64,000 nucleotides of DNA from positions 3,562,001 through 3,626,000 of the forward strand of contig NZ_AP022848.1 in assembly GCF_011764485.1 (NCBI RefSeq). The letters are read 5' to 3'. The notes under the pieces were generated by a model. It ran no database searches. It saw nothing but the letters and a program-made list of their open reading frames with translations, and was not told where the DNA came from. This document shows, piece after piece, positions 37,040-53,034 of this stretch (positions are counted from its first letter, which is position 1; every line of letters starts with the position of its first letter). Source of the stretch: Bosea sp. ANAM02 (lineage in GTDB: Bacteria > Pseudomonadota > Alphaproteobacteria > Rhizobiales > Beijerinckiaceae). The translations under genes were made by a program, and so were the position numbers.

Positions 37040-40000
37040 TCAACGCACCGGAATCCGTCCACGCCATTCGCGCCCCTGCCCGACCGTGGCGCCGAGCTGG
37101 CGGAGCGAAAGCCCGATATCCGGCTGCGGCGTCCCGAAATCCGCGAGTTCCTGCGCGGCCGGGTAGAGCCATCCGGGCGCGTTCACGATTTCGGTACGAA
37201 GCCGATCCTCGCCGTCGAGAACGCCGATTTCATAGCGCTCGCTCTCCTCCCCCAGCGGCACCTCCGCCAGCTCCCAGGAATCACCGTCGATCCGCGTCCG
37301 CCGGAGCCAGCTCAGGACGATGCCGTCCCCGGTCCGGGTCGCTCCAGGCCGGACCGGGGAGAGCGGGAAGAGCGCTTCGCCCGTGATCGCGGTCTCGAAC
37401 TCGACCATCGTCGCATCGCCGACATCGTCGCGGACCGGACCGACGCGATAACGCTGCCTCCGGCCGATATCCGCCAGATCGCTCGTCAGCGAGACAGCCG
37501 CCCCATCCAGCACCACCACCCGGGCGCCGGCCGGCAGCAGCCGTGCCGCCGCGGCCTCGCTGCCGCCGATCCCGCGGATCAGGCCCGACAGGCGGAACTG
37601 TTGCGGCCCGACCAGCTCGACCTGAGACACCGTAACGATCTCGACCGCGCCATCCTCATCGACCAGGGCGAGTGCGTTCGCTCCGGCCAGCGCCGCCTCC
37701 GGCGAGACGGAGGACAGCACGCCGCCGCGCAGCCTGACCTCCAGCACGGCACGCCGATCGGTCCGCCAGAGCGGCCCCGGCGGCAATGCCGTCAAGGTCT
37801 CGCCGACGATCGAAGGCGCCTCGACGAAGCCGTCCAGCGCGAACTGCCCGGCCTCGTCGGCGCGCCAGATCGCGAGGCCACCCGGCCAGGGCGCGGCGAA
37901 GGCGGCGAGCGACAGCAAAGGCGGCGGCTGCACGGTGACGATCGGCAAGGCCAGCGGCACGGCGAGCGGGCGCCCGGGCAAGGCGGGAGGTGTGCGCGGC
38001 GGACGCGTGCCACCGCTCGTTCCCGTCGTCACGTAGACCGCCGGTTCGACGGCGCGCGCGCTGACTTTCCGCGCCGGACCGTCGGAGATGCGGGTGACGC
38101 GGAACAGGCGGTTGCCGGCTTCCGTCGACACGGACAGGACATCGCCGGGCTCGATCGCGATGCAGCGCGGCGACAGCTCGCATTCCAGAGCTTCGCGCCC
38201 GGCCCAGGCTTCCTGCAAGCGCTGGTCCGCAAGGCGCTGCCCCTCGGCCGAGCGGGTCACGATCGCGGTGTCGACGGCGACCTCGCGGCGAGCTGCCCCC
38301 GCCAGCCGGCGCGAGCGCGCCGCGGCGCTGCGATAATCGGCCTCGCTGTCGCTGAAGCCGAGGCGCAATTCGAGCGGCAGTTCGGTCTCCTGGCTGCGCC
38401 GCAGCGTGAACGGCTCGCCATCGCGATCGGGAACGAGATCGTCGGGGCCGAGCAGGCGGGAAACCTGGCCGCCCCTGCCTTCGAAACGCAGGGTTCCCCC
38501 GCTCATGACCGCATCGAAGCCGAAGCTCTGGGCGAGCGGCTCCAGCGCCTGCCTCGCCGATAGCGGGCGGTCCAGCACGAAACCGTCGACGAAGCCGTCG
38601 ACCGTGATCCGGTCCGCCGGTGGCAGGCCGAAATCGGCCAGGAGCCTGGCAACGAGCCGGTCGACCGGCGTGCCTTCCAGGCGCCCGTTCAGCCAGTGAC
38701 CGGTCTCGAAATTCGCGCCGTCGGCCCAGATGCCGGAGATGTCAGGGAAAGCCGGAAAAGGCCGCATATCCCAGGTCCAGACGAATATCCTGTCGGGATC
38801 GACCATGCGGATGCCGCTGACCGGATGAACCGGATTGCGCGCGGGATCGAACCCGGCCCGCGCCGGATCGAAGCCCGAGATGATCGCCTCCAGCGCACGG
38901 GCCTGCACCAAATCGTCGCGCACTCCGCTCGAAAACGGCGGATAGCCGCCTTCGTCCGATTTGGGATCGGGGAACATGTTGGGCGCATTGGCGCCCTTGT
39001 CGACGGCGGGCACGCCAATCTCGGTCAGCCAGACCGGCTTGCCGCCGGGCACGAACGGGGTCGCCGTCGTCTCGACGCCGCCCGCACGGCGGATATGAAG
39101 CTGGCTCCACCAGCCCCACAAATCCTTGGGCCGGAAGATCCAGGGCTTGCCATAGGCGCCGTCGGTGATCGGCAGGCGCGCCTGCGCGTCCCGGCCGGCC
39201 TCGTCTACATAGTACCAGTCATAGGCCTCGCCGGCGGTCAGGCGCTGGCGCAGATAGGCGAGATCGGCCGGGCCGCGCGCGATCGCGGCATCGGCATGGC
39301 TGCCGGAATCGCGCCAGTCCGAAAGCGGCGGATAGAAATCGATGCCGATCGCGCCGATCGCGGGGGAAGCCCAGAGTGGATCGAGCGGAAAATCGATGCT
39401 GTCGCCGCCCTCGCGGACATCCGCACCGTATTCGGTCCAGTCGGCGGCATAGGTCGCGACCGTGCCGGGAAGCATCGTCGTGACGTCCTGCGCGATGGCC
39501 GTGAGCTGATCGACCATGGGATAGCCGGCCGCGCCGCGCAGATGCGTCAGCCCGACCATCTCGGAGCCTATGACGAAACCCTCTACGCCGCCGGCGGCCT
39601 GCGCCAGCGCGGCGCAGTGCATCACGAGGCGGCGATAGGACCATTCGTCCGGCGTGGCGCAGGTGACGCTGTCGCCCGCCACGGCCATATCGGCGGGCGC
39701 GACGGTGCCGACGAAGGATGCGATCTGCGCCGCAACCGCCGCGCTGTCCTCCGGGCTGCCCGGCCGGCCCGGCGCCGGATCGCAGGTGATGCGGCCGCGC
39801 CAGGGATAGCGCGGCTGGCTCGCCGACTCCGAATAGGGATCCGGCAGCGTGTTTCCGGCGGGGATGTCCATCATCAGGAAGGGGTAGAGCACGACCTCCA
39901 GCCCGTAATCGAAGCGCAGGCGCCGGATCAGCGCGACGACGCTCTCGTCCGAGGGCGTGCCGCCGAAGGCCGGCCGCCCGGAGACCTGGCTGACGGCGCG

Positions 40001-40963
40001 GGCCGAGGAGCGCGTCAGCCCCGCAACGGACCATTGCGCCCCAACCGTGGGCTTGTGCGAGAGCTCGATCCGGGGCGCGACGGTGCAAGCGCCGGCGCGC
40101 AGATCGTCGCCGAACCAGGACACGACCAGCGAAACCCGGCGCAGACTGGGGCACAACGACAGGAGATGGCTGAGCGCGGTGTCGGCATCGCTGCCGCCAT
40201 AAAGCTGATGGCGCGTCAGGCTTTCGCTGACGCCGGGCTCGGGCTCGTGGCTGACCGCACGGACGTCGTAGACGAACTCGCCGGCCCCCGGCGTCAGCGC
40301 CACCGCGCGGATCATGCCGCCCAGGCCGTCGACGGCGCGCACGACCTCGAAATCGAACTGCGGCACGCGGTTGCCGTAATCGGCCAGCGGAAAGCGCTCG
40401 AACACGACATAAGCAAGCCCGCGATAGGCCGGCGCCTCGCCCGCTTCCTTCGCAGCGATCAGCGGATCCGGCTCCTGCGTCTCATGGCCGTGATGCAGAC
40501 GCATCGAGACCGTCGCGACGTCAAGCTCGCGCCCGTCGACCCAGATGCGCCGGATGAAGGCGATCGGCCCCTCGCACAGTCCGATCGCGAGGTTGGCATG
40601 GTAGCTATAGGTCGTCTCGAAGGTCTTCCTGGAGCGGCCGCCACCCTTGCCGCCGCTCTTGGTGCGCGTGATCGAGACGGTGACCTCCTCCTCGAAGCGC
40701 GTCGCCCAGATCAGTTGGCCGCCGAGCCGCGCCCGGCCGTAGAGACGCGGTATCGCGCCTCCTTCCGTCGCGGCGAGGCCGTTGACCTCCTTAAGGCGCG
40801 GGCCGTCGACGATCTTGTTCCCGCCGCCGGCACCGCCGAGCCAGGCCTGGTCGATGCTGGCGCCGGCGAGCCCGCCCAGGGCCTGGCCGATGACGCCACC
40901 GATCGAGCCGCCCAGACCCGATCCGAGGGCGGACCCGGCAACCTGGAGAAGAAGCGTCGCCAT
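37040..40963 (-). CDS. GTA baseplate/host-specificity multidomain protein (RcGTA g15-like)
   Basis: Largest protein of the cluster, 1307 residues from the ATG at 40961-40963. A longer frame to 41014 overlaps g14 too far and lacks similarity. The N-terminus is glycine-rich and hydrophobic (LGSGLGGSIGGVIGQALGGL). A central TIM-barrel-like domain (about 430-790, with GIDFYPPLSDWRDSG and PVWLTEIGVPAVDKG) is followed by the phage-tail-type and C-terminal regions ending RQLGATVGQGREWRGRIPVR. In Rhodobacter GTA this protein forms the tail tip hub and contacts the host surface. The start shares one base with the g14 stop. Confidence 0.93.
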   Translation of the reverse strand: MATLLLQVAGSALGSGLGGSIGGVIGQALGGLAGASIDQAWLGGAGGGNKIVDGPRLKEVNGLAATEGGAIPRLYGRARLGGQLIWATRFEEEVTVSITRTKSGGKGGGRSRKTFETTYSYHANLAIGLCEGPIAFIRRIWVDGRELDVATVSMRLHHGHETQEPDPLIAAKEAGEAPAYRGLAYVVFERFPLADYGNRVPQFDFEVVRAVDGLGGMIRAVALTPGAGEFVYDVRAVSHEPEPGVSESLTRHQLYGGSDADTALSHLLSLCPSLRRVSLVVSWFGDDLRAGACTVAPRIELSHKPTVGAQWSVAGLTRSSARAVSQVSGRPAFGGTPSDESVVALIRRLRFDYGLEVVLYPFLMMDIPAGNTLPDPYSESASQPRYPWRGRITCDPAPGRPGSPEDSAAVAAQIASFVGTVAPADMAVAGDSVTCATPDEWSYRRLVMHCAALAQAAGGVEGFVIGSEMVGLTHLRGAAGYPMVDQLTAIAQDVTTMLPGTVATYAADWTEYGADVREGGDSIDFPLDPLWASPAIGAIGIDFYPPLSDWRDSGSHADAAIARGPADLAYLRQRLTAGEAYDWYYVDEAGRDAQARLPITDGAYGKPWIFRPKDLWGWWSQLHIRRAGGVETTATPFVPGGKPVWLTEIGVPAVDKGANAPNMFPDPKSDEGGYPPFSSGVRDDLVQARALEAIISGFDPARAGFDPARNPVHPVSGIRMVDPDRIFVWTWDMRPFPAFPDISGIWADGANFETGHWLNGRLEGTPVDRLVARLLADFGLPPADRITVDGFVDGFVLDRPLSARQALEPLAQSFGFDAVMSGGTLRFEGRGGQVSRLLGPDDLVPDRDGEPFTLRRSQETELPLELRLGFSDSEADYRSAAARSRRLAGAARREVAVDTAIVTRSAEGQRLADQRLQEAWAGREALECELSPRCIAIEPGDVLSVSTEAGNRLFRVTRISDGPARKVSARAVEPAVYVTTGTSGGTRPPRTPPALPGRPLAVPLALPIVTVQPPPLLSLAAFAAPWPGGLAIWRADEAGQFALDGFVEAPSIVGETLTALPPGPLWRTDRRAVLEVRLRGGVLSSVSPEAALAGANALALVDEDGAVEIVTVSQVELVGPQQFRLSGLIRGIGGSEAAAARLLPAGARVVVLDGAAVSLTSDLADIGRRQRYRVGPVRDDVGDATMVEFETAITGEALFPLSPVRPGATRTGDGIVLSWLRRTRIDGDSWELAEVPLGEESERYEIGVLDGEDRLRTEIVNAPGWLYPAAQELADFGTPQPDIGLSLRQLGATVGQGREWRGRIPVR

Positions 40964-41394
40964 CAGTCGGTCACTCCGGGGAAGGAAAAGGCATGGCTGA
41001 GATGGCGTTGCCACCAGGGCGTGAAGGCGACCTCGGCGACGGCCGCGCCGTCATGGGCATGAATGAGGCGGTCGGGCGCCGACAGGATCGCGCAATGCTT
41101 GGCCGGCAGATGCGCGCGCCAGCGAAAGAGCAGCACGTCGCCCGGTCTCGCCTCCGCGATGGCGAGCGGCCGCAGATGCCGCTCCGCCGCCAGAGCCAGC
41201 GTCTCCTGCCGCAGGCTCTCGGCCCAGCTCGGCGAATAGGGCGGCGGCATTTCCGGCTCGGCTCCGCAGAGGTCGCGCCAGACGCCGCGGACCAGCCCGA
41301 GGCAATCGCAGCCGACGCCGCGCAGCGAGGCCTGATGATGATAGGGTGTGCCCAGCCAGAGCCGCGCCGCCTCGACGATCTCGTCGCGCGTCAT
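40963..41394 (-). CDS. GTA NlpC/P60 peptidase (g14-like)
   Basis: Small cell-wall hydrolase or scaffold of the tail tip, 143 residues. The NlpC/P60 catalytic Cys31 lies in GVGCDCLGLVRG and His100 in LPAKHCAIL; the third polar residue is probably near IHAHDG. In RcGTA the equivalent protein helps the tail cross the recipient's peptidoglycan. The start overlaps the g13 stop by 4 bp. Confidence 0.92.
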   Translation of the reverse strand: MTRDEIVEAARLWLGTPYHHQASLRGVGCDCLGLVRGVWRDLCGAEPEMPPPYSPSWAESLRQETLALAAERHLRPLAIAEARPGDVLLFRWRAHLPAKHCAILSAPDRLIHAHDGAAVAEVAFTPWWQRHLSHAFSFPGVTD

Positions 41395-42272
41395 CGGAAC
41401 AGGCTCCCGCCGTCGAGCGCCCCGTCGCCGGGGCGGACGCCGCCGATGATGAAATCGCTGGTCGGCATATGCGGGAAGCCGCGGAAATTGACGCCGTTGG
41501 CGAATTTGGCGCGACAGGTCGCGAAGATCTTGTCGCAGCCCGGCGTCACCCGGAAGCCGTCGCCAATAGCAATCGGCGCCGCCGGCGCCTGCCAGAGCTG
41601 GAACAGCGCCTGCGCGCCCTCGCGGCCATGCCGCTTCACCTCGGTGGCGAAACCCGCATTCGCACCGCTGGTGAAGACCAGCCTGCCGGCGGTGAAATGA
41701 CCGTCCGGGTAGGAGCCCATGCCCTCAGCCGAGAACGAGAGACGGCCGTCGCTCGCGATGACCTCGGCTTCGGCCGCAACGAGCGCGACGCCGCAGCGCG
41801 CGTCGCCGAGATCGGCCGAGCAGGAGCGCATGTAGAGCCGGCCCCTCTCCTCGTCGAAAGCCTTGGCGAAGCTGCGGATTTCGGCCGTGAAGCTGGTCTC
41901 GCCACGCTTGATCTCGCCGACGAAGCCTTCCTCCATCAGCACGCGCTGGCCTGGGTCGGCCCAGTTGACCAGCCAGACGCGGGCGCGCGCATCGTCGTAA
42001 AGCCCGCGCGCCAGGTCGGTTTCGTTCAGCCCGAAGGCCGCGAAGGCGCCGGCGACCTCGCCGCCACCGATGGCGAAGCCGAGCTCCGCCGCGCTTTCCG
42101 CCGCTTCGACACCGGTCGTCGCGGCGAAGTCGACGCCGTCGAAAGACAGCTTGCGATCGTGATCGGTGAAGCCGAGCACGAGCCCGTCGCGGCGCGTCAG
42201 GCTCCAGCAATGGCAAAGCGTCGTCGCAGCCGTCTCGAGATGGGCGGCGAGACCGGAGGGGATGTCACGCAT
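41391..42272 (-). CDS. GTA tail hub protein, DUF2163 (g13-like)
   Basis: Structural protein of the distal tail, 293 residues, opening MRDIPSGLAAHLETAATTLC. The C-terminal domain has the family's CDKIFATCRAKFANGVNFRG segment with conserved cysteines, preceded by the GFATEVKRHGREGAQALFQL strand region. It is placed between g12 and g14 as in Rhodobacter. The ATG lies 9 bp after the g12 stop. Confidence 0.93.
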   Translation of the reverse strand: MRDIPSGLAAHLETAATTLCHCWSLTRRDGLVLGFTDHDRKLSFDGVDFAATTGVEAAESAAELGFAIGGGEVAGAFAAFGLNETDLARGLYDDARARVWLVNWADPGQRVLMEEGFVGEIKRGETSFTAEIRSFAKAFDEERGRLYMRSCSADLGDARCGVALVAAEAEVIASDGRLSFSAEGMGSYPDGHFTAGRLVFTSGANAGFATEVKRHGREGAQALFQLWQAPAAPIAIGDGFRVTPGCDKIFATCRAKFANGVNFRGFPHMPTSDFIIGGVRPGDGALDGGSLFR

Positions 42273-42281: not shown

Positions 42282-42920
42282 TCAGGGAATAATCTCGACC
42301 ACGGGAACGCGCGGGATCTCGCCGGCCGCGAAGGCGGAGAGATCGACCTCGATGGCGTCCGTGTCGAAGCGGACGGGCACGTCGAAGGCGAAGCCGGCGG
42401 TGAGGACGGCGCCGAGCGGTGGGATCGATCCGGCCGCGATGGTGACCTGTCCCGTCGACAAATTGCAGGAGAAGGCGCTTCCCGCGAGTTCGACGCCATC
42501 CATGGCGATCCGCACCGTGCCGGCACAGGGCTTGGTGATCTCGCGGCTATAGGCGGAGGCGCCTGCCCCGTAGGCCTTGCAGAGCTGGAAGACGGAGGCG
42601 ACACCGTCGCCGACCCCGATGACCTGGTCAGTCGCCGCCGGCTCCTGCGAGGGCGGGCCGCTCTTCCAGTCGAGCTGGTCGCGCCAGCGGAAGCCGTGGA
42701 GCCGGCCGCGCCGTTCCTCGAAGAAGCTCACCACGGCGGCGAGCGCATCGAGCGTGCGGATGCCGAGCCCGGCATCATAGCGGCGGCGCGAATGGGCCCA
42801 GCGGCTGTTGCGGACCTCGCGCCCGGAGGCGAGCGTCACGATCTGGGTCTGGCGTTCCGGCCCACCGCGCGCGCCGCGCGCGACATCGAGCGGGAAGCGG
42901 ACCTCATGGAAATCCGGCAT
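42282..42920 (-). CDS. GTA distal tail protein, DUF2460 (g12-like)
   Basis: Distal tail ring protein, 212 residues. The N-terminus MPDFHEVRFPLDVARGARGG and the FEERRGRLHGFRWRDQLDWK segment are characteristic of the TIGR02217/DUF2460 family. The C-terminal half is beta-rich and ends IPRVPVVEIIP. It lies between the tape-measure gene (12 bp) and g13. Confidence 0.94.
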   Translation of the reverse strand: MPDFHEVRFPLDVARGARGGPERQTQIVTLASGREVRNSRWAHSRRRYDAGLGIRTLDALAAVVSFFEERRGRLHGFRWRDQLDWKSGPPSQEPAATDQVIGVGDGVASVFQLCKAYGAGASAYSREITKPCAGTVRIAMDGVELAGSAFSCNLSTGQVTIAAGSIPPLGAVLTAGFAFDVPVRFDTDAIEVDLSAFAAGEIPRVPVVEIIP

Positions 42921-42932: not shown

Positions 42933-43538
42933 TCAGAGCGCGCGCCGGCCGCGCGCGACGGCACGGGCGATCGCCGCGGAGACCTGCGCCTCCGAGCGGC
43001 GGAAGCTGTCGGCATCGGGGGTCGAGACCTGCACGACGACGTTGAGCGGGCGCCCCTGCCCACTGCCGGCGCGTACGCCGAGGCGCCCATCCGGCCCGCG
43101 AGCGAGCGGCATGATCGCCTCGGCCCCGCGCTCGCCCATCAGGCCGAGCCCGCGCCCGGTCGGGAAATAGGAGGGCGAAGCGACGATGCCGCCCTCGGCG
43201 AAGGGCGCAATCGGCACGGTGCCGCCGGAACCGCCCAGGCCGATGCCGCCGAATAGACCCGTCAGGCCCTTGATGCCCGTGCTCAGCAGGCTCGACAGGC
43301 CGGTCTGGAGCGGCTTCAGCGCCGTCTTGAGCAGGCTGTCGGTCATCGAGCGGCCGACGCTGCGCAGCACGTCCTCGAAGCGCTTGCCCTCGACGACCCC
43401 GCGCGAAAAGGCATTGACGATCGACTTGCCGAAGCTCTCCGAGGACCGGCTCAGCGACTGTGTCAGCCTGTCCATCGCCCTGAGATCGGAGAGGCGCCCT
43501 CCCGACTCGATACCGTCATCATCCGTCATGACCGTCAC
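42933..43538 (-). CDS. GTA short tape-measure protein (g11-like)
   Basis: Determines tail length, 201 residues, far shorter than siphophage tape measures but the usual size in GTAs. The N-terminal helix region (LRAMDRLTQSLSRSSESFGK) leads to a hydrophobic, glycine-rich core (STGIKGLTGLFGGIGLGGSG) and a C-terminal domain with FPTGRGLGLMGERGAEAIMP, typical of phage tape-measure C-termini. It follows the tail assembly chaperone gene by 27 bp. Confidence 0.9.
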   Translation of the reverse strand: MTVMTDDDGIESGGRLSDLRAMDRLTQSLSRSSESFGKSIVNAFSRGVVEGKRFEDVLRSVGRSMTDSLLKTALKPLQTGLSSLLSTGIKGLTGLFGGIGLGGSGGTVPIAPFAEGGIVASPSYFPTGRGLGLMGERGAEAIMPLARGPDGRLGVRAGSGQGRPLNVVVQVSTPDADSFRRSEAQVSAAIARAVARGRRAL

Positions 43539-43565: not shown

Positions 43566-43766
43566 TCAGGCGTCGGGAAAGGCGGCCATCAGCGCAGCCA
43601 GCGCCGGGCGCTCCGGCGCAGAAGCACGGGACCGGTCCTGATAGGCCCGCAATGCCGCCGCGATCTCGCGCGGCGTCGCGGCCCAGAAGCGCTCGGGCGG
43701 CCAGGCCAACCGGCCGAGCCCGAAGGCCATCACCTCGTCCCAGGGAAAGCCCGCCGGCGCGCCTAT
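43566..43766 (-). CDS. GTA tail assembly chaperone (g10.1-like), start unclear
   Basis: Small phage tail assembly chaperone of the TIGR02216/DUF2376 type. The conserved core is FPWDEVMAFGLGRLAWPPER, continuing FWAATPREIAAALRAYQDRS. No ATG, GTG or TTG lies upstream of the core in this frame; the nearest candidates (GTG 43731-43733, ATG 43728-43730) would remove the conserved FPWDE. An ATA at 43764-43766 sits in the position of an overlapping start (ATAG with the g10 stop) and gives 66 residues, the family size. The true start cannot be decided by eye; the gene itself is well supported. Confidence 0.75.
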   Translation of the reverse strand: MGAPAGFPWDEVMAFGLGRLAWPPERFWAATPREIAAALRAYQDRSRASAPERPALAALMAAFPDA

Positions 43767-44107
43767 GCCGGCGGCTGCGGAGGGCGGGATGCGTCCCCAC
43801 CCTCGCCGAAGGTCGCCTCGAGCAGCGCGATCGCAGCCTTGATCGCTCCGCTGAGGCCGCCATCGAAGGAAAGCTCGGCGACATCCTCGTCGCGGATCGC
43901 CCTGCCCGCGCCGCGCAAGCCCGCGGCGATGATGCGGATGATGTCGCGGGCGGAGAGCCTGCCCTCGACGAAGCGCTCGCCCAGTGCCGGGAGGCTGTCG
44001 ACGGCGAAGGCATGCTCGAGCTCGGCGAGCGCGCCGAGGGTCAGGCGCATCGGCAGGGTTTCGCCGGAGACCATGAGCGCGGTCTCGCCGCGATGACGAT
44101 TGACCAT
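43763..44107 (-). CDS. GTA tail assembly protein (g10-like)
   Basis: Tail tube assembly factor of the gene transfer agent family, 114 residues. MVNRHRGETALMVSGETLPM opens it, followed by RLTLGALAELEHAFAVDSLP and ARDIIRIIAAGLRGAGRAI, all matching the GTA gp10 family; the Pro/Ala-rich tail is variable. It lies 11 bp after g9, and its TAG stop lies within the first codons of the g10.1 frame. Confidence 0.9.
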   Translation of the reverse strand: MVNRHRGETALMVSGETLPMRLTLGALAELEHAFAVDSLPALGERFVEGRLSARDIIRIIAAGLRGAGRAIRDEDVAELSFDGGLSGAIKAAIALLEATFGEGGDASRPPQPPA

Positions 44108-44118: not shown

Positions 44119-44529
44119 TCAGAGCGCCGCAAAGGCGAGCGGGCCGGCCGATTCCAGCGACAGGTCGAAGGTGACCTCGCCGGCATGGTCGCCGCGATAT
44201 TCCAGCCCCGTGAGCTGAAACGGGCCCGAGATCGTGCCGAAATCCGGCACGACGATCTGCCAGTCACGGATCACCCCGTCGAAGAAGCTCTGGCGCACGA
44301 GCGCGTCGGAGGCCTCGTCCTTGAATATGCCGGAGCCGCTGATGCTGGCACGGCGCACGCCGGCGCCCGCCAGCAGTTCGCGCCAGCGCCCGGCCGATTC
44401 CGAATGCGTCACGTCGACGGTCTCGGCGTTGAAGGCGATCTGGCGCGCCCTCAGGCCGGCGACCGTGACGAAGCCGCCGGCACCATCCCCTGCCTTGAGC
44501 AGCAGGTCCTTGCCCTTTTGTGCCGCCAT
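44119..44529 (-). CDS. GTA major tail tube protein (g9-like, TP901-1 type)
   Basis: Forms the tail tube, 136 residues from the ATG at 44527-44529, which has AAGGAG upstream; a frame to 44562 runs into a repeat. MAAQKGKDLLLKAGDGAGGF and FNAETVDVTHSESAGRWREL are typical of TIGR02126/TP901-1 major tail proteins, as is SISGSGIFKDEASDALVR. A rhizobial-type palindrome lies just upstream. Confidence 0.93.
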   Translation of the reverse strand: MAAQKGKDLLLKAGDGAGGFVTVAGLRARQIAFNAETVDVTHSESAGRWRELLAGAGVRRASISGSGIFKDEASDALVRQSFFDGVIRDWQIVVPDFGTISGPFQLTGLEYRGDHAGEVTFDLSLESAGPLAFAAL

Positions 44530-44610: not shown

Positions 44611-45021
44611 CTAAAGCGTTTCGGTGGCGGCACGGAAGCGGACCGTCACTTGCGGCAATCCGTTGCGCGCCTCGCGGGCGAGCCGGCTCGACAGCCAGCG
44701 CAGATTGACCAGCGCATGCCCGTCCAGGGCGAGATCGACCTGGTCGAGCGCCGAGACGATCAGGCCCGCCGCCTCCAGCGCCTGCCGAGACGAACTGCTC
44801 TGTGCAGCCCAGACGACGAGCGCGAATTCCTGCTCGCAACCCCGGTCGCTGCCGGTCGACCAGTCGCGCGCCTCGACCTCGCCATGGACGACATAGAACC
44901 CGCGCGCCGCGCGTGGCGCTTCGTCGAAAACGCGATCGGGGCCGATCAACGTGGTCAGCGCGGCATTCGCGACAAGACGTGCCTGAACGGCAGCGCGAAG
45001 GGCCAGAATGGCATCGCTCAT
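44611..45021 (-). CDS. GTA tail terminator, DUF3168 (g8-like)
   Basis: Head-tail connector or tail terminator protein, 136 residues from the ATG at 45019-45021, overlapping the g7 stop by 4 bp. MSDAILALRAAVQARLVANA and LIGPDRVFDEAPR are characteristic of DUF3168; the end reads NGLPQVTVRFRAATETL. A longer open frame to 45519 passes over g7 and is not used. Confidence 0.92.
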   Translation of the reverse strand: MSDAILALRAAVQARLVANAALTTLIGPDRVFDEAPRAARGFYVVHGEVEARDWSTGSDRGCEQEFALVVWAAQSSSSRQALEAAGLIVSALDQVDLALDGHALVNLRWLSSRLAREARNGLPQVTVRFRAATETL

Positions 45022-45359: not shown

Positions 45360-45925
45360 AGCCTCCCGCGGCGGAACGGCGCGACCAGCGCAGCGATCGC
45401 CACCGGCAGGGCTTGCGCATCGCGGCCGGCGACATCGCCGCGCTGCTCGAACCAGCGGGCGGCGAGGCGCAGCACCGCCTGCCGCAACGGCGCCGGCACG
45501 GCGGCAGCGGTCGCGCCATAGCCGGCGGCGACGTCGATCTCGATCGCGCCGTGGACGCGGCCGATCTCCGGCAGCTCGCCTGTCAGGCGGATAACCGGCG
45601 GATCGGCTGCCTTGTCCAGGGTCAGGGACGCAGCCGCGACGACCTGGGCGGAACCGAGCACGTCATAGACGCGCGCCGCGTCGATCCGCAGCAACGGCGA
45701 GAGCGGCAGGCGGATCTCACCGCCCGCCGGCCAGCGATCGAGCACGATGCGCCAGGGCTGCTCGATCAGGCAGCGGCCGGATGCCGCCTCGATCATCAGC
45801 CTTGCAGCGGTGATCAAGGTGGTGAGCAAGGCGTCCTCGTCGGTCTGGTCGAGGCGCAGGAACTGGCGCGCTTCGGTGAGCGTCACCGGCTCCATCGTCG
45901 GCGGACCCAGGGCAAGCGGCGTCAT
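45356..45925 (-). CDS. GTA head-tail connector (g6-like)
   Basis: Connector protein, 189 residues from the ATG at 45923-45925, which has GGGAG upstream; an ATG at 45938-45940 would add five residues. EPVTLTEARQFLRLDQTDED is the family N-terminus of gp6-like head-tail connectors, with the AAGYGATAAAVPAPLRQAVL region near residue 150. It is the first gene of the second GTA block (g6-g15). Upstream lie 116 bp shared with a divergent protease gene, so this block probably has its own promoter; none is obvious. Confidence 0.92.
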   Translation of the reverse strand: MTPLALGPPTMEPVTLTEARQFLRLDQTDEDALLTTLITAARLMIEAASGRCLIEQPWRIVLDRWPAGGEIRLPLSPLLRIDAARVYDVLGSAQVVAAASLTLDKAADPPVIRLTGELPEIGRVHGAIEIDVAAGYGATAAAVPAPLRQAVLRLAARWFEQRGDVAGRDAQALPVAIAALVAPFRRGRL

Positions 45926-46041
45926 GGGCGCTCCCTTCATTCGTTCGATTGCATGAGGTTCGACCGCGAGGCCGCGGCCGAAGAGGGTTCATCTGCGGCG
46001 CCGGGCGCGCTATTGAGCGATCTCTCGAAGAGGAGCGCCCG

Positions 46042-46821
46042 ATGCGCATCGCCAACCGGATCGTCGCCATCGGCCTCGCTTTCGCCGCAGTAGCGAGCTT
46101 CGGGAGCCTGCCGGTGGGAGCCGTCGTTGCCGGGCAGGAAGGCGGGCCGGCCGCTGGCTCGACATTGATGGTGCTCAACGCCCGCGGCGGGGTCTGCACC
46201 GGCATCGTCCTGTCGCCGCGCGCCATTCTGACCGCGGCTCATTGCGCCGCCGGAGGCACCGAACTCCGGATTCACTGGCGGGAAGCCGGAGAGCCGGTCC
46301 TGATCGTGCCAGCTTCCGTCGCGTTGCATCCGGAATTCGACGCCGGTGCCATCCGCAGCCGGCGCCGCACGATCGATCTTGCCCTGATCCGCCTGGCCGA
46401 GCCCCTGCCCCGCCGGTTCAGCGCGGCGATGCTCGTCGATGGCGCGCTGCCGCGCGCCGGCAGCGACATCACGCTTGCCGGCTACGGCGTCTCCCGCGAG
46501 GGCGAGGCGCGCAGCATGGGCATCTACCGCTCGGCGGCGCTGAAAACCGTCGAGCCTTACGGGCCCGGCCGCATCCTGCTCTGGGCGGCCGACAGTGCCG
46601 GCGGTGGCAAGCGCCCCGGAGCCGGCGCCTGCCAGGGCGATTCAGGAGGCCCGATCTTCGGCGACACAGGAATTGTCGCGATCACGAGCTGGTCGACCGG
46701 CCCTTCCGGACGCCAATGCGGCCTGCTCAGCCAGGGTGTTCTCGTCGCGCCGCAACGCGGCTGGATCGATTCCACCTTGTCGAGATGGGGCGAAAGCGCG
46801 CACTGGACGCGCGACCGCTGA
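46042..46821 (+). CDS. Secreted trypsin-like serine protease, first of tandem pair
   Basis: S1-family endopeptidase, 259 residues. The ATG at 46042 has AGAGGAG upstream and opens a signal peptide (about 1-28); a longer frame from 45949 is less likely. The catalytic triad is complete: His67 in LTAAHCAAG, Asp112 in TIDLALIRL and Ser201 in CQGDSGGPIF. Cysteines 52 and 68 fit the usual His-loop disulfide. The gene is opposite to the GTA genes on both sides and lies between g6 and g5. No link to GTA function is known. Confidence 0.9.
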   Translation: MRIANRIVAIGLAFAAVASFGSLPVGAVVAGQEGGPAAGSTLMVLNARGGVCTGIVLSPRAILTAAHCAAGGTELRIHWREAGEPVLIVPASVALHPEFDAGAIRSRRRTIDLALIRLAEPLPRRFSAAMLVDGALPRAGSDITLAGYGVSREGEARSMGIYRSAALKTVEPYGPGRILLWAADSAGGGKRPGAGACQGDSGGPIFGDTGIVAITSWSTGPSGRQCGLLSQGVLVAPQRGWIDSTLSRWGESAHWTRDR

Positions 46822-47744: not shown

Positions 47745-47837
47745 CCGTCATGCTCGCCCCTGTGGCGAGCATCCAAGTATTGCCGCCACCCCTCGAAAGG
47801 CGAAGACGTGGATGGTCGGGACAAGCCCGACCATGAC
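47745..47837. repeat. Palindromic intergenic repeat, family A copy 2
   Basis: Arms CCGTCATGCTCGCC and the complementary GACCATGAC end, with an inner GTCGGGACAAGCCCGAC hairpin, about 93 bp. It fills the space between the convergent second protease gene and the capsid gene and could terminate both transcripts, which would separate g5 from the g6-g15 block. Confidence 0.75.
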
Positions 47838-47858: not shown

Positions 47859-49103
47859 TCAGACCGCGAACTTGAGTCCCTTGATCGCGGCGAAGTCCTG
47901 GACGCCGCCGCCGACGCGCTTGGTCGTGTAGAACAGCACATAGGGCTTGGCGGAATAGGGATCGCGCAGGATGCGGACGCCCGCCCGGTCGACGACGAGA
48001 TAGCCGCGGCGGAAGTCGCCGAAGGCGATCGAGACCGCATTGTTGGCGATATTCGGCATATCCTCCGCCTCGACGAGCGGGAAGCCGAGCAAGGTCGCCG
48101 GTGCGCCGGCCGAGGCAGGGGGCTGCCAGAGATAGTTGCCCGTCGAGTCCTTGAACTTGCGGATCGCTCCTTGCGTCTTCCGGTTCATCACGAAGGAAGC
48201 GTTCTGGCGATAGCCGGCCTTCAGCGCGTAGACGAGATCGACCAGCACGTCGGAAGGGTTCGAGGCCGGAAAGGCGCCGGCCACACCGGTGTTGAGCACA
48301 CCGACATTGCCCCAGCTCCAGCTCGCGTCGGCGACCGTCGGATAGGCCAGGAACCCCTTCGGCTTGTCGACGCCGTCACCATTCACGAAGGCCGCGCCCT
48401 CCTGCTCGGCGAAGGCGCTTTCGACCTCCTCGGCGATCCACTGGTCGATATCGACGATGGCGTCGTCGAGCAGGGTCTGGGTCGCCGCCGGCATGGCGTA
48501 GAGCTCCATGGCCGGGAAGGAGAGTTCGGCCAGAGTCGGCGACGCACCCTGCGGCCGCGCCGCCGTCTCCGCCACCCAGCCGGAGGCCGGGCCGGTGGTC
48601 GAGAACGCTTTCTTATAGGTGCCGGACGAGATCGTGCGGACCGTGGCGAGCGCGCGGATCGGCGAGACATTGGCCAGGCGGCGCAGGATCTCGCCCTCGA
48701 CGGTGGCCGGCGCGAGGTAGCCGCCATCCGGGCCCGAGCCGGCGGAGAGCGCCTTGGCCTCCAGCCGCTTCAGCCCGCCGGCCTCGCCGGTACGGACATA
48801 GGAAGCGAAGGCCGCCTTGTGCTCAGCCGTCAGCGGATCGCGCGGGCCGTCATGGCCGAGCGCCGGGCGGGCGCGCTCCAGCGTGAGCCGGTCGATGCGG
48901 CGCATGGTGTCGTCGAGCGCCGCATCCATGCGGACGAGCTTCTCCTCGGTCAGCGGGTCGACGCCCTGGCGCGCCTCGAGCCCCGCGAGGCGCTCCTCGT
49001 TGGTGGCACGGTAGTTTTCGAGCGTGTAGCACAGATCCTCGAAAGCCAGCGCGAGATCGCCGCCGGCGGCCTTGGTCTCTGGCACGGTGTTGAGATGGCT
49101 CAT
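47859..49103 (-). CDS. GTA major capsid protein, HK97 family (g5-like)
   Basis: Head shell protein, 414 residues. The N-terminal 100 residues are a charged, coiled-coil-like delta scaffold (LALAFEDLCYTLENYRATNE). The HK97 fold follows from about 120, with SPIRALATVRTISSGTYKKA, PAMELYAMPAATQTLLDDAI, LGFPLVEAEDMPNIANNAVS and the C-terminal FGDFRRGYLVVDRAGVRIL. The start is 22 bp after the prohead protease stop. The delta domain is probably removed by the g4 protease. Confidence 0.95.
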   Translation of the reverse strand: MSHLNTVPETKAAGGDLALAFEDLCYTLENYRATNEERLAGLEARQGVDPLTEEKLVRMDAALDDTMRRIDRLTLERARPALGHDGPRDPLTAEHKAAFASYVRTGEAGGLKRLEAKALSAGSGPDGGYLAPATVEGEILRRLANVSPIRALATVRTISSGTYKKAFSTTGPASGWVAETAARPQGASPTLAELSFPAMELYAMPAATQTLLDDAIVDIDQWIAEEVESAFAEQEGAAFVNGDGVDKPKGFLAYPTVADASWSWGNVGVLNTGVAGAFPASNPSDVLVDLVYALKAGYRQNASFVMNRKTQGAIRKFKDSTGNYLWQPPASAGAPATLLGFPLVEAEDMPNIANNAVSIAFGDFRRGYLVVDRAGVRILRDPYSAKPYVLFYTTKRVGGGVQDFAAIKGLKFAV

Positions 49104-49125: not shown

Positions 49126-49635
49126 TCAGATGAAGGCTGGCGGCCGCGTCGCCTTGACGGCGGCGATCCGGGCCTGGGGCAGCATCGGGAAGGTCACGAC
49201 CGAGACCTCCCAGAGATCGATGCGTTCGAGCCGACGCAGGCCGGTTCGCGGTTCGGTACGGGCTTTCTCATGGCGAAAGCCGATCGAGAGTCCGTCGATC
49301 GCACCGTCGAGCATCAGCGCATGGATCTCGCGGGCCCGGGCGACAGCCAGCGACAGCCGGCCGCGCACGAACAGGCCACGGCTATCCTCGGTGAGGCTCG
49401 ACCAGCGGCCGATCGGCTCGGCCGGATCATGCTGCCAGAGCATCTTCACACCGCCCGGCCCGCGCCTTTGCAGGCTCTCGCGGAAGGCGCCGGGCTCGAC
49501 GATATCCTTGCCGAGATCGGGAATACGGAACAGGCTGGCATAGCCCTCGAAGACGCCGTCCAGTCCGATCCGGGCCGGCTGGAGTGGCAGCAGCTTGGAT
49601 TCGAACGAGGCGCGGGCCGGGCTCGGTCGCCTCAT
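49126..49635 (-). CDS. GTA prohead protease, HK97 family (g4-like)
   Basis: Capsid maturation protease, 169 residues. After a basic N-terminal tail the domain starts VFEGYASLFRIPDLGKDIVE. The active-site His lies in MLWQHDPAEPIGRW and the Ser in IDGLSIGFRH, the standard HK97 protease motifs. Its ATG overlaps the stop of the 59-residue gene upstream, so the two are coupled. Confidence 0.94.
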   Translation of the reverse strand: MRRPSPARASFESKLLPLQPARIGLDGVFEGYASLFRIPDLGKDIVEPGAFRESLQRRGPGGVKMLWQHDPAEPIGRWSSLTEDSRGLFVRGRLSLAVARAREIHALMLDGAIDGLSIGFRHEKARTEPRTGLRRLERIDLWEVSVVTFPMLPQARIAAVKATRPPAFI

Positions 49636-49811
49636 CGCTCGCCCTCCGTGCCGTCCCGGCCACCCTTCGTCCGCCCGGTCTCGAGCTTCGCGAGCTGGCT
49701 GACGAAGCGGCTGAAGGTCTCGACCGGCGCGCCGCCGCGCGACGCCCTCCCGGCACGGGCTGGCATGGGCGCCTTGGGCGGCGGCTTGGCCGTGCCGTTT
49801 CTGCCTTTCAT
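49632..49811 (-). CDS. Small basic protein between portal and protease genes, unknown
   Basis: A 59-residue frame from the ATG at 49809-49811, with GAGGGGGA just upstream, overlapping g3.5 and g4 by about 4 bp on each side. The tight packing and strong ribosome site support translation. It is basic and Pro/Gly-rich at the start (MKGRNGTAKPPPKAPMPARA) with a helix-like end (FSRFVSQLAKLETGR). I recognise no family; RcGTA has one small gene here, so this may be an extra component. Confidence 0.65.
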   Translation of the reverse strand: MKGRNGTAKPPPKAPMPARAGRASRGGAPVETFSRFVSQLAKLETGRTKGGRDGTEGER

Positions 49812-50008
49812 GACGGGTCCCCCTCGTGGCGTGCGTTGAAGCGGTTGAGCTCGCGGACGAAATCGTCGAAGCGGCGATTGGCGGCGGTCAGCTCGCGCAG
49901 GACGAGCCAGGCCAGTCCCGAGGCGCTCGCGGCCCAGAGCAGCAGGCCGAGATGGCCGACATCGGCACGGCCGACGAAGGCCGCGACGACCTGTTCGAGC
50001 ATGTTCAT
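49808..50008 (-). CDS. GTA small membrane-like protein (g3.5 position)
   Basis: A 66-residue protein from the ATG at 50006-50008, with AAGGAG five bases upstream. One hydrophobic segment (GLLLWAASASGLAWLVLREL, about 25-44) is followed by a charged helix (RRFDDFVRELNRFNARHEGD). It overlaps the portal gene and the next small gene by 4 bp each. The position is that of g3.5 in RcGTA. A single-helix membrane protein could anchor assembly or aid release, but that is speculation. Confidence 0.7.
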   Translation of the reverse strand: MNMLEQVVAAFVGRADVGHLGLLLWAASASGLAWLVLRELTAANRRFDDFVRELNRFNARHEGDPS

Positions 50009-51186
50009 GAGGTCTCCTTCCCGGAGGCGCGCCGGCCGTAGCCGACGGCCTCGCGCTTCTCGTCCTCGTCGAGGAAGGTCGCAGCGCCGAGCCGGCGCCA
50101 GAGCGATTCCCGCTCGTCGGCCAGCGCCTCGATCGCATCGAGATCGGGTTCCAGGGTGAGTTCGTCGCCGAAGGCCGGGCCGAGCCATTGCGCCAGCGAC
50201 TGCGAGGTGCGCCGCACCAGCGGAATGACGGTCTGGCGCCAGAGCGCACGATTGGCCTCGGCGAAATTGGCATGGGTGTTGTCGCCGGGCAGCCCGAGCA
50301 GCAGCGGCGGCACGCCGAAGGCGAGCGCGATCTCGCGGGCTGCGACGCCCTTGGCGGCGACGAAATCGAGCTCCGCCGGCGTCAGCGAGAGCGGCTTCCA
50401 GTCCAGCCCGCCTTCGAGCAGCAGCGGGCGGCCGGCATTGCGGGCACCCTGGAACGAGTCCTCCAGTTCCTGCTTGAGCCGCTCGAACTGCGCCTCGGTC
50501 AGCGTCGCGCCTTCCGGCCCGTCATAGACCAGGGCTCCGGAGGGGCGCGCGGCGTTGTCGAGCAAGGCCTTGTGCCAGCTCCCCGCTGCATTGTGGATGT
50601 CGAGCGACACCGCTGCCGGCTCGATCGGCGACAGGCCGTAATGGTCGTCGACGGGGTGGAACAGCGTCAGGTGCAGGATCGGCGGCAGGCCGCCCTCGTC
50701 CTGCCGGAAGCGCACCGTGTCGCCACCGACCGTGTAATCATAGGCCTCGGGCCAGCCGTCGCGGCCGGGTACGACGCGCATACGGTCGGGCCGGAGCGCA
50801 TAGAGCTCGCGCGGCTCGCGGCCGGTGCTCACCGCCTCGACATAGGCATTGCCGGCCACGAGCAGATGCCCGACCAGCATCTCGCGGAAGGCGATGCCGC
50901 CCTGGCGCGGGTTCGGCCGCTCGATCAGGGCGAGCGCCGGATGCTCCGGCATCTCACGGGCACCGATCTTGGCGACGAGCGGCGTCTGCGCCGCCGCCTC
51001 CGCGATCAGGCGGATGCAGCGATGCACGACCGGGTTGCGCTCATAGCCCTCCCGCGAGAGCGCGACATAGTCGCGCGGCGTCCAGACGGCGCGCCCGGCC
51101 TCGTGCAGCGCGATCAGCGGCCCGACGCGCGAGCGCTTCTGGTCCGGCGCGGCACGGCCGCGCAGGCTGCGAAGAAAATCGAACAT
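50005..51186 (-). CDS. GTA portal protein (g3-like)
   Basis: Forms the head's DNA entry ring, 393 residues, HK97-type portal. Family segments include NPVVHRCIRLIAEAAAQTPL, RPNPRQGGIAFREMLVGHLL, AGNAYVEAV and, near residue 285, AAREIALAFGVPPLLLGLPG with DNTHANFAEANRALWRQTVI. The ATG is 206 bp after the terminase stop, an unusually wide gap for this cluster, and a palindromic element lies in it. Confidence 0.95.
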   Translation of the reverse strand: MFDFLRSLRGRAAPDQKRSRVGPLIALHEAGRAVWTPRDYVALSREGYERNPVVHRCIRLIAEAAAQTPLVAKIGAREMPEHPALALIERPNPRQGGIAFREMLVGHLLVAGNAYVEAVSTGREPRELYALRPDRMRVVPGRDGWPEAYDYTVGGDTVRFRQDEGGLPPILHLTLFHPVDDHYGLSPIEPAAVSLDIHNAAGSWHKALLDNAARPSGALVYDGPEGATLTEAQFERLKQELEDSFQGARNAGRPLLLEGGLDWKPLSLTPAELDFVAAKGVAAREIALAFGVPPLLLGLPGDNTHANFAEANRALWRQTVIPLVRRTSQSLAQWLGPAFGDELTLEPDLDAIEALADERESLWRRLGAATFLDEDEKREAVGYGRRASGKETS

Positions 51187-51392: not shown

Positions 51393-52655
51393 CTACATCC
51401 CCCTCACCCGCGGCCGGGCCTTCGGTGCCAGCATCAGATGGGTCAACGCCCAGACGAGCGCATCGAGTCGGTCGGGCGAGCGCCCCGTTTCGAGCCCGCG
51501 CGGCCCGAAGGCGCACATCTCGTCTTCGAGTTCGGGAAAGGCCCCGGCATGGCGCACCCGGCCCTGCGCATAGAGCGCGGCGACCGGCTCGGCCCGAAGA
51601 TATTTGCCACGAGTCGCCCGCACGGCGACGACAGGCACGCCGGCATCGACCTCGCGGATGATACTTTCGACCATCTCGCCGCCCTGGTTGACCTCGACGA
51701 CCAGCACATCCGCTTCGTGGCGGCGATAGAGCGCGACCGCCCTTTCCGCCCATTCCTGCGGGCGGGCGCCGGCCAAGGTCGCGTCCTCCAGCACATGGCC
51801 GATGCCGTCATGGTCGACGCCGGCGACGACGAGCCCGCAGCGGTCGGCCCGCTGCGAGGAGGTGGCGGGCGGATCGACCGCGACCGCGATCCGGGCGAGC
51901 GCCGGCTTCTCACGTTCGCGGGTCGCCTCGATCATCGCCCGCGTCCAGAGCGCGTCCGGGCTTTCCTCGACGATCTCGCCGTCGAGTTCCTGCCGGCCGA
52001 GCCGCGTCCCGCCATAGGTCTGCGTGACCGTGCGGACGAATTCGGCCGCGAGATTGTAGCGGTTGTCCTGCGTCCGCGCCCGGCTCACCGCGACATGCGG
52101 CTCGACCAGCAGGCGCTTCACCAATGGCAGCGGACGGGGAGTCGTCGTCACGACCTGGCGGGGATGGTCGCCGAGGCGCAAGCCGAATTGCAGCATGTCC
52201 CAGCTCTCCTGAAGGTTCGGCCACTTGGCCAGTTCATCGGACCAGGCGGCGCCGAATTGCGGGCCGCGCAATCCTTCCGGGTCTTCGGCGGTGAAGACCT
52301 GCGCGATCGCGCCAGTCGACCATTGCAGGCGGCGCAGCGAGGGCTGCCAGATCGGCCGCTCCCCGCGGGTATGGATCGAGAGCAATCCGGAGACGCCCTC
52401 GATCATGACGTCGCGAACCTGCGCCTGCGTCTCGCCGACGAGGGCGATCCGTTCGATCGGCATATCGGCATAGGGCGGATGACCCAGCGCCATGCCCTTG
52501 ACCCATTCGGCCCCGGTGCGGGTCTTGCCGGCGCCGCGCCCGCCCAGCACCAGCCAGATCGGCTTCAGCGGGTCGGGCGGCAATTGATCCGGGCGCGCCC
52601 AGATACTCCAAGTGGAGCGAATGATCTCGACATCATCCGCCGTCGCCGTCGGCAT
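51393..52655 (-). CDS. GTA large terminase (g2-like)
   Basis: ATP-driven DNA packaging motor and headful nuclease, 420 residues from the ATG at 52653-52655 with AGGA five bases upstream. A frame to 53102 is longer but reads through g1 in another frame and is rejected. Walker A is LGGRGAGKTRTG (37-48); the IERIALVGETQAQVRDVM and AAWSDELAKWPNLQESWDML segments match terminase ATPase motifs. The C-terminal RNase H-like nuclease has acidic residues in IAVAVDPPATSS, VVAGVDHDG and the final LDALVWALTHLML. It overlaps g1 by 23 bp. Confidence 0.95.
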   Translation of the reverse strand: MPTATADDVEIIRSTWSIWARPDQLPPDPLKPIWLVLGGRGAGKTRTGAEWVKGMALGHPPYADMPIERIALVGETQAQVRDVMIEGVSGLLSIHTRGERPIWQPSLRRLQWSTGAIAQVFTAEDPEGLRGPQFGAAWSDELAKWPNLQESWDMLQFGLRLGDHPRQVVTTTPRPLPLVKRLLVEPHVAVSRARTQDNRYNLAAEFVRTVTQTYGGTRLGRQELDGEIVEESPDALWTRAMIEATREREKPALARIAVAVDPPATSSQRADRCGLVVAGVDHDGIGHVLEDATLAGARPQEWAERAVALYRRHEADVLVVEVNQGGEMVESIIREVDAGVPVVAVRATRGKYLRAEPVAALYAQGRVRHAGAFPELEDEMCAFGPRGLETGRSPDRLDALVWALTHLMLAPKARPRVRGM

Positions 52656-53034
52656 CAGCTTCCTGAGGATTCTCACGCGCGTCCTGAGCGACAAGGGCCT
52701 CAAGACGTCGAGCAAGATCCTGACGGAGCTGTGCGACATGTCGCAAATCGTCGGCAGCGGAAGGGTCATCCGAGCGCTTGTCCTTCCTCGTGGCCGGGGG
52801 CTCCTCGATCGCGACCAGCTCGCGTACGGTGCGGGCGAGCACGGCGAGCGCCTTGGCGTCGGCCTCGCTTGCGGTCGTGCCCTTCGGCAGGTCGGCGAGG
52901 TGCTCCTCATGGGTGTCGATCTGGCGCTTGGCGGCGCGCCAGAGCTGCCCCACCACCGCCTTGCGGGAGATCGCTTTGCGTTTCGACTTCGGCCCGGCGG
53001 CCGGCTGCGGCGTGGTCTCGTCCTCTTCGGCCAT
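52633..53034 (-). CDS. GTA small terminase-like protein (g1-like)
   Basis: First gene of the GTA cluster, 133 residues from the ATG at 53032-53034, with AAGGA upstream; a GTG at 53056-53058 is a weaker alternative. The N-terminal third is charged (PKSKRKAISRKAVVGQLWRA), followed by helical segments (DAKALAVLARTVRELVAIEE and LRHVAQLRQDLARRLEALVA) and an acidic end. Size, helical pattern and position match the DNA-recognition subunit g1. Sequence similarity is weak, as usual for this protein. Confidence 0.8.
   Translation of the reverse strand: MAEEDETTPQPAAGPKSKRKAISRKAVVGQLWRAAKRQIDTHEEHLADLPKGTTASEADAKALAVLARTVRELVAIEEPPATRKDKRSDDPSAADDLRHVAQLRQDLARRLEALVAQDARENPQEADADGDGG

What the first reader, a model, noticed from the sequence alone, without database searches (positions are those of the whole stretch)
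37040..53034. Complete RcGTA-type gene transfer agent structural cluster
Homologues of g1 to g15, including the small g3.5 and g10.1 positions, are all present and intact in Rhodobacter order over 16 kb. Lysogeny, integrase and replication genes are absent. Established knowledge: such clusters package random host DNA. Inference: this strain may make transducing particles, which is rarely shown for Bosea-like Hyphomicrobiales. Host lysis and regulatory genes (endolysin, holin, GafA) are not in the window.
Basis: partly seen in the sequence, partly recalled or inferred. Interest (0 to 1): 0.75.

Follow-up and report, generated by a model that had tools for sequence, protein, structure and literature searches.

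The report
Gene-transfer-agent cluster harbouring nested protease genes
This Bosea bacterium carries a full set of genes for a virus-like DNA-transfer particle, but in its middle, on the opposite strand, sit two genes for protein-cutting enzymes that are conserved in many related bacteria and often remain where the particle genes have been lost.

Summary
The RcGTA-type cluster is real: g1 to g15 lie in order on the minus strand, with open frames and purifying selection. The split gafA pair (about 180 kb away) and a DUF2793 tail-fibre gene are in the genome; in Bosea both go when the cluster goes. No GH108 endolysin was found. Particle production is untested. So far, a member of a known kind.

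One or both are there in 79 of 80 titled relatives (Bosea, Microvirga, Methylobacterium, Chelatococcus and others) and in 9 of 80 junctions of an order sample. They often outlive the GTA: 25 of 34 GTA-less, protease-bearing loci read keep them at the old site, over at least nine apparently independent losses. Against this, one GTA-bearing clade lacks them, and in the family trypA is commoner with the GTA (78 of 91) than without (35 of 58). I read the pair as an autonomous host unit nested in a GTA. Its function is unknown; my paper searches showed no description.

The parts
52633..53034 (-). g1, small terminase position (133 aa)
   Evidence: position and size; no family hit; tblastn match in 33 of 110 loci (30 of those loci are short pieces around g5)
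51393..52739 (-). g2, large terminase (start uncertain; 52655 is an alternative)
   Evidence: PF03237 3e-29, PF17289 4.1e-23
50005..51186 (-). g3, HK97 portal
   Evidence: PF04860 1.7e-85; TIGR01537
49808..50008 (-). g3.5 position, 66 aa
   Evidence: position; match in 99 of 110 loci; no family hit
49632..49811 (-). extra 59-aa frame, ATGA-overlapped with g3.5 and g4
   Evidence: 78% or more identity in seven close Bosea loci, weak elsewhere
49126..49635 (-). g4, prohead protease
   Evidence: PF04586 5.1e-32
47859..49103 (-). g5, HK97 major capsid protein
   Evidence: PF05065 1.4e-94; TIGR01554
46885..47727 (+). trypB: S1 (trypsin-fold) protease with export signal, antisense to the GTA (GTG start at 46837 possible)
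   Evidence: PF00089 5.3e-29; triad H82/D128/S215 of the 296-aa frame in 83, 83 and 84 of 84
46042..46821 (+). trypA: S1 (trypsin-fold) protease with export signal, antisense to the GTA
   Evidence: PF00089 3.5e-19; triad H67/D112/S201 in 95 of 95; model pLDDT 81, S1 fold
45986..46013 (+). promoter-like element upstream of trypA, GGTTC-N17-SGCTAT
   Evidence: same spacing in 26 of 31 GTA-bearing titled Bosea loci and in 8 of the 10 GTA-less Bosea loci
45356..45940 (-). g6, head-tail adaptor
   Evidence: PF05135 2.3e-9; TIGR02215 4.8e-50
45018..45359 (-). g7, head closure
   Evidence: PF05521 6.5e-25
44611..45021 (-). g8, tail terminator
   Evidence: PF11367 5.1e-23 in the frame 44611-45519
44119..44529 (-). 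g9, major tail protein
   Evidence: PF06199 9.4e-47
43763..44107 (-). g10 position
   Evidence: position; match in 78 of 110 loci; no NCBIfam hit
43566..43796 (-). g10.1, tail assembly chaperone (start approximate)
   Evidence: PF09550 2.7e-15 in the frame 43566-44267
42933..43538 (-). g11, tape measure
   Evidence: RcGTA_tape 171 bits, cut-off 220; PHROG tape measure
42282..42920 (-). g12, distal tail protein
   Evidence: PF09343 1.1e-84; Rcc01695 family
41391..42272 (-). g13, baseplate hub
   Evidence: PF09931, PF09356; TIGR02218 phage/GTA hub
40963..41394 (-). g14, NlpC/P60 peptidase
   Evidence: TIGR02219 7e-58
37040..41014 (-). g15, megatron with GTA TIM barrel
   Evidence: PF13547 2.4e-118; GTA_megatron 1626 bits
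30400..36615 (-). conserved left flank: ccmH, ccmF, ccmE, ccmI-like TPR protein, histidine kinase, response regulator
   Evidence: used as the site marker
53345..55341 (-). right flank: LOG-like protein and M20 peptidase
   Evidence: beside the protease pair in 7 of the 8 loci L114-L121

Best explanation
A complete RcGTA-type cluster in which a host gene unit is nested. The GTA half works as in known GTAs (inferred): split GafA (DnaA-like protein plus DUF6456 protein) switches on g1-g15, particles are assembled, filled with host DNA and released by lysis. At the head/tail junction sits an antisense unit of two proteases. Shown: trypsin fold by family match (both) and model (trypA), full catalytic triads, an export signal that in most trypA ends just before an [IV][IV]xG start, a conserved promoter-like element in Bosea, purifying selection. 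Inferred: signal peptidase itself frees the N terminus that activates such enzymes, so the pair works in the periplasm or outside the cell, probably cutting at residues other than Arg/Lys (residue 189 is Gly, by recalled numbering). The unit entered an already domesticated GTA in an ancestor of several Hyphomicrobiales families. It serves the host by itself, so when deletions erode the GTA from both sides those that spare it are the ones kept. If g1-g15 are one transcript, it crosses the unit antisense, so GTA induction should silence the proteases, and GafZ-modified polymerase may carry transcription across. These last steps are inference.
For: Antisense protease gene(s) between g5 and g6 in 79 of 80 titled loci; the miss, L087, ends before g6. 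In the order sample 9 of 80 junctions read, in families f1, f18, f33. Triads 95/95 and 83-84/84. 25 of 34 GTA-less, protease-bearing loci read keep one or both genes beside the conserved flank. The eight clean GTA-less Bosea are not one clade (p-AU 4e-10) and the loss pattern in Bosea needs four changes. Promoter-like element with constant spacing in 8 of 10 GTA-less Bosea. dN/dS in the eight GTA-less loci 0.26 (trypA) and 0.145 (trypB). gafA and DUF2793 go with the GTA in Bosea, trypA does not. No match of trypA in 50,697 phage records at E 1e-4. One origin of the insert is not rejected (p-AU 0.80).
Against: 13 of 91 GTA-bearing f1 genomes lack trypA; the 8 read form one clade nested inside the bearing set, so the unit can be dropped. 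In f1 trypA is commoner with the GTA (78 of 91) than without (35 of 58; Fisher p 0.0007, relatedness ignored), and 23 of 149 lack both. 9 of the 34 loci are not at the site. trypB is missing in six titled loci and in six of the eight later GTA-less f1 loci at the site. The element was chosen by eye on these same loci, is missing in the two decayed GTA-less Bosea loci L127 and L131, and occurs in 0 of 49 other f1 loci. No terminator or consensus sigma-70 promoter there. dN/dS is a crude pairwise count. No expression or activity data. The deep tree is weakly supported.
Confidence: 0.67

Rival explanations
1. The proteases are GTA accessory proteins: exported before lysis, they process the envelope, surface fibres or a receptor so that particles are released or taken up, and they have a second role that explains their survival.
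For: Long conservation inside the cluster and an association with it: trypA in 78 of 91 GTA-bearing and 35 of 58 GTA-less f1 genomes. No GH108 endolysin in this genome, so release is unexplained. In C. crescentus the peptidase serines of LypA and LypC are needed for GTA-linked lysis (PMC13236601, passages).
Against: Antisense to the GTA, with a promoter-like element of their own in Bosea; kept in Bosea that lost gafA and the tail fibre; absent from a GTA-bearing clade; LypA and LypC are multi-domain proteins, unlike these single-domain ones with export signals.
Confidence: 0.16
2. Mutual silencing: the antisense unit is a regulatory device. Protease transcription in growing cells collides with leaky GTA transcription and keeps the tail genes off; strong GafA-driven transcription reverses this.
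For: Fixed antisense placement between head and tail genes in 79 of 80 titled loci; g6 and trypA diverge from about 100 bp.
Against: Does not explain retention after GTA loss, nor the GTA-bearing clade without it; no RNA data.
Confidence: 0.1
3. A moron: the genes came in with the ancestral prophage as a lysogenic-conversion cargo.
For: Antisense, promoter-like element of its own, at a structural-gene junction. Another antisense gene (and a weaker second case) sits at the same junction in other families.
Against: Absent from the 70 other g5-g6 junctions of the order sample that could be read; no phage record matches trypA.
Confidence: 0.05
4. Mere neutral insertion or assembly artefact.
For: None beyond the general possibility.
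Against: Same arrangement in separate assemblies of several genera, triads and dN/dS.
Confidence: 0.02

Closest known systems
RcGTA of Rhodobacter capsulatus and RcGTA-like clusters of Hyphomicrobiales
   Same: g1-g15 set and order; DUF6456 GafA; DUF2793 tail fibre elsewhere in the genome
   Different: a two-gene antisense protease unit between g5 and g6; gafA split in two, as published for Hyphomicrobiales (PMC9638019, passages); endolysin and head spikes not identified. That RcGTA has g6 directly after g5 is recalled.
Caulobacter crescentus GTA (gafY/gafZ)
   Same: split activator; no lysis-gene homologue was found there either (PMC9632790, passages)
   Different: no nested protease unit in the passages seen
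LypABC CARD-NLR-like system of C. crescentus
   Same: trypsin-like peptidase domains linked to GTA release (PMC13236601, passages)
   Different: LypA and LypC are multi-domain proteins; trypA and trypB are single-domain with export signals; synteny not tested
Phage morons (recalled)
   Same: antisense cargo with its own promoter at a structural-gene junction, possibly of use to the host
   Different: sits in a GTA, not a phage; arose after domestication on present evidence

Membership tests
RcGTA-type gene transfer agent | ordered g1-g15 head-tail set | tested here: met
   g1, g3.5 and g10 by position and relatives only
RcGTA-type gene transfer agent | no integrase or replication genes in the cluster | tested here: met
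   frames listed, family scans; not every small frame was scanned
RcGTA-type gene transfer agent | GafA activator elsewhere in the genome | tested here: met
   DUF6456 E 9.2e-42; order sufE - DUF6456 - DnaA-like - MucR (DnaA C-terminal domain by Pfam; sufE and MucR named by eye)
RcGTA-type gene transfer agent | DUF2793 tail fibre | tested here: met
   E 3.7e-28, 464-aa frame; named as the RcGTA tail fibre in PMC10883770 (passages)
RcGTA-type gene transfer agent | endolysin/holin | tested here: inconclusive
   GH108 absent from this genome, present in 20 of 67 Bosea; other types not searched
RcGTA-type gene transfer agent | head spikes (GhsA/GhsB) | not tested
   no model used
RcGTA-type gene transfer agent | particles that package random host DNA | not testable with these tools
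   -
RcGTA-type gene transfer agent | uninterrupted structural cluster (usual, not strictly defining) | tested here: not met
   two antisense genes between g5 and g6
S1 (chymotrypsin-fold) proteases | fold and His-Asp-Ser triad | tested here: met
   model for trypA only
S1 (chymotrypsin-fold) proteases | proteolytic activity | not testable with these tools
   -
LypA/LypC CARD-NLR-like peptidases | extra domains beside the peptidase (CARD and ATPase, or endonuclease) | tested here: not met
   259 and 280 aa; only trypsin domains in Pfam; PADLOC hits weak and limited to the peptidase part
phage moron | autonomous antisense transcription unit in a phage structural operon | tested here: inconclusive
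   antisense and promoter-like element shown; transcription untested; no phage match

The most novel reading that the evidence does not exclude
A host-beneficial protease unit nested at the head/tail junction of an ancient GTA has made whole-cluster deletion costly and so slowed GTA loss, while its antisense transcription and that of the GTA exclude each other, so a cell either secretes the proteases or makes particles.
Probability: 0.15. Interest if true: 0.8.

Novelty: new variant of a known kind. Interest (0 to 1): 0.5.

Why it matters
Why bacteria keep GTAs is an open question. Here are many related genomes with and without the GTA at one chromosomal site; in Bosea the regulator and fibre vanish with the cluster but the nested proteases stay. 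That makes retention, loss and regulation of GTAs testable in ordinary soil bacteria, and it warns that a contiguous GTA operon cannot be assumed outside Rhodobacter.

Tried and rejected
Terminase family PF03354 in the own genome: no match; this terminase belongs to another family. GH108 endolysin as a GTA partner: no link. The minus-strand frame 46852-47772 was taken for a shadow of trypB (no family hit). AlphaFold without an alignment was poor (pLDDT 34) and not used; the one with alignment A1 was. Rfam: nothing. Apparent absence of capsid and protease in G059 is a contig end inside g6. Stops flagged in trypA of G105 and G142: the frames run through the active site and are long enough to be whole; flagged stops in other genomes were not checked. 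Phage origin of trypA: no match. Viral-contig loci L233-L312 were fetched but not analysed. Taxon codes f1, f18, f33, f46 and the g-codes carry no names, and cannot be matched with the titled loci; my guesses at names are not used. One broad paper search listed nothing relevant. Rows left out: 4 of 94 in the tree and 1 of 65 (L334), for too few genes; two loci without trypA.
Full report
WHAT IS THERE. The window lies at G000:C1:3562001-3626000 of a 5.65-Mb genome. By capsid sequence its closest titled relatives are Bosea (97% downward). The GTA runs on the minus strand from g1 (53034) to g15 (37040). Family scans identify most genes, ending with g15 as GTA megatron at 1626 bits. g1, g3.5 and g10 rest on position and relatives.

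WHAT WAS MISSED. Between g5 and g6 lie two genes on the + strand, both S1 (trypsin-fold) proteases. trypA gives a usable model (pLDDT 81, pTM 0.81) whose nearest solved structures are trypsins, kallikreins and other S1 proteases (by sequence). Over 95 trypA and 84 trypB relatives the triads are kept. Most trypA frames have an export signal ending at an [IV][IV]xG start (89 of 95; for trypB the strict pattern fits 42 of 84). By recalled chymotrypsin numbering residue 189 is Gly, so Arg/Lys specificity is not expected (inference).

HOW WIDESPREAD. In the 80 titled loci fetched with g5 (the best 80 of 557), 79 have one or both genes antisense between g5 and g6; L087 ends before g6. Five Chelatococcus loci and L107 have trypA only. 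In 199 genomes of the order 139 have a capsid match at E up to 1e-60. I read 80 of those 139 junctions: 9 have the insert (f1 6 of 6, f18 2 of 2, f33 1 of 1); of the other 71, 70 show g6 without it and one ends before g6. Three more f18 genomes read later also have it, one of them cut by the contig end (L227-L229). trypA matches (E up to 1e-18) occur in 26 of 199 order genomes, in f1, f18, f33 and f46 only. A tree of g6, g8 and g9 (90 of 94 rows) does not reject one clade of insert-bearing GTAs (p-AU 0.80; the held tree even scores better), though deep branches are weak. In the protease tree the f1 A copies form one group, the f1 B copies fall together with those of f46, and both broadly follow host genera.

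INDEPENDENCE FROM THE GTA. Of 67 Bosea genomes 56 carry the GTA: 55 by capsid match (four with a split or partial capsid gene, G030, G041, G050, G065) and G059 by g6-g15. Ten do not (G006, G008, G016, G025, G040, G042, G048, G051, G054, G063; G040 and G042 keep remnants), and G032 is too fragmented to tell. A DUF6456 (gafA) match is in 56 of 56 (in two pieces in G021, partial in some others) against 1 of 10, that one broken. DUF2793 at E below 1e-20: 48 of 56 against 0 of 10, two of these with weak partial hits. trypA at E below 1e-60: 55 of 56 (the miss is G059's contig end) against 10 of 10. In the eight clean GTA-less genomes the site reads left flank, trypA, trypB; the right flank follows in 7 of 8 (loci L114-L121). 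Their trypA and trypB stay under purifying selection (dN/dS 0.26 and 0.145, 28 pairs each). A tree of two right-flank proteins and both proteases (43 rows) needs four changes of GTA state, one for G040, and rejects one clade for the eight (p-AU 4e-10). It uses genes of the same locus, and loss rather than gain is assumed.

Outside Bosea the same site without GTA but with protease(s) is seen in five f46 genomes, G253 (f18) and G263 (f1), and in eight of twelve further f1 genomes read (six of these eight have trypA only). One of them, L331, has weak remnants of g1 and of the start of g6 on either side of trypA. Of the other four, three have trypA away from the flank genes (L325, L326, L335) and L334 holds a GTA with a broken capsid gene. 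With the six f33 loci that are also off-site (L220-L225), 25 of 34 GTA-less loci read keep protease(s) at the old site; 56 such genomes were found, so 22 were not read. Counting only groups that also hold GTA-bearing members gives at least nine losses: four in Bosea and one each in g4, g113, g115, g116 and f18, if those groups are natural.

RESULTS AGAINST. In 149 f1 genomes: GTA and trypA 78, GTA only 13, trypA only 35, neither 23 (recounted; one of the 35, G322, proved to hold a GTA with a broken capsid gene; place of trypA not checked except where read). I read 8 of the 13; all have g6 close after g5, and they form one clade beside an insert-bearing genus. So the unit can be lost while the GTA stays.

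REGULATION. About 100 bp separate g6 and trypA, which diverge. GGTT[CTG]-N17-[CG]GCTAT lies within 120 bp upstream of trypA in 26 of 31 GTA-bearing titled Bosea loci (window included; missing in L035, L042, L043, L044, L050) and in the eight clean GTA-less loci, but not in the two decayed ones, L127 and L131. Five further Bosea loci, four with damaged genes and one whole, have it too. The spacing is always 17; 0.0016 would be expected per 120 bp from its density in all loci. I chose the pattern after seeing these sequences, and it occurs in 0 of 49 other f1 loci. The consensus scan found no promoter or terminator there. If g1-g15 are one transcript it crosses the pair antisense. For Caulobacter the authors suggest that GafZ may travel with RNA polymerase (PMC9632790, passages), which would fit, but nothing here tests it.

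OTHER INSERTS. In the GTAs without proteases the g5-g6 gap exceeds 500 bp in 11 of 70 loci, against 0 of 64, 3 of 63 and 4 of 66 at g6-g7, g7-g8 and g8-g9. One such gap holds an antisense zinc-type dehydrogenase (L180), one a PIN-domain frame below its cut-off (L147). The head/tail junction may be where inserts are best tolerated.

COMPARISON WITH WHAT IS KNOWN. RcGTA-like clusters are common in the order: PMC9638019 reports a published estimate of 60% of 730 genomes (passages), and the gafA layout here is the one it describes for Hyphomicrobiales. For the insert I searched 'gene transfer agent' with trypsin (88 papers, 20 listed), with serine protease and capsid (12 listed), with moron (2) and with Bosea (1), and looked for it in passages of PMC6821227, PMC9765227, PMC10883770, PMC11409702 and PMC6854486. 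I saw no description. One open library was searched and no paper was read whole. The nearest link is LypABC of Caulobacter, whose LypA and LypC peptidase serines are needed for lysis (PMC13236601, passages), but those are different, multi-domain proteins.

VERDICT. The GTA itself is ordinary. The nested, antisense, long-lived protease unit is a new variant of GTA architecture of moderate interest. Its function is unknown, and its independence from the GTA rests on comparison alone, with an association in f1 that is not yet explained.

Noticed in passing
window 49632-49811 (-): 59-aa frame between g3.5 and g4, ATGA overlaps on both sides, conserved in close Bosea.
   Followed up: partly
window 53217-53334, 26268-26383; also in own-genome locus L129 4076-4204: Palindromic intergenic repeat of about 115 bp in several copies.
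   Followed up: no
L122/L123 (G050), L124/L125 (G030): The capsid gene is in two parts about 59 kb and 23 kb apart on the same contig, as if a large element had entered g5.
   Followed up: no
L334 (G322): GTA with the capsid gene in several broken pieces, both proteases matched beside it.
   Followed up: no
L180 484-1902, L147 341-1048: Other antisense frames at the same g5-g6 junction in other families: zinc-type dehydrogenase; weak PIN domain.
   Followed up: partly
L220-L225: GTA-less f33 genomes with a single related protease away from the flank genes.
   Followed up: partly
L331 8232-8468 and 10182-10334: Weak remnants of g1 and of the start of g6 on either side of a kept trypA.
   Followed up: partly
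L169 3096-3395 (+): 99-aa antisense frame with a possible export signal beside trypA in the g5-g6 gap.
   Followed up: no
L233-L235 (viral contigs): Contigs of about 51-54 kb catalogued as viral carry Bosea-like GTA capsid genes (84-85% identity), perhaps GTA regions counted as viruses.
   Followed up: no
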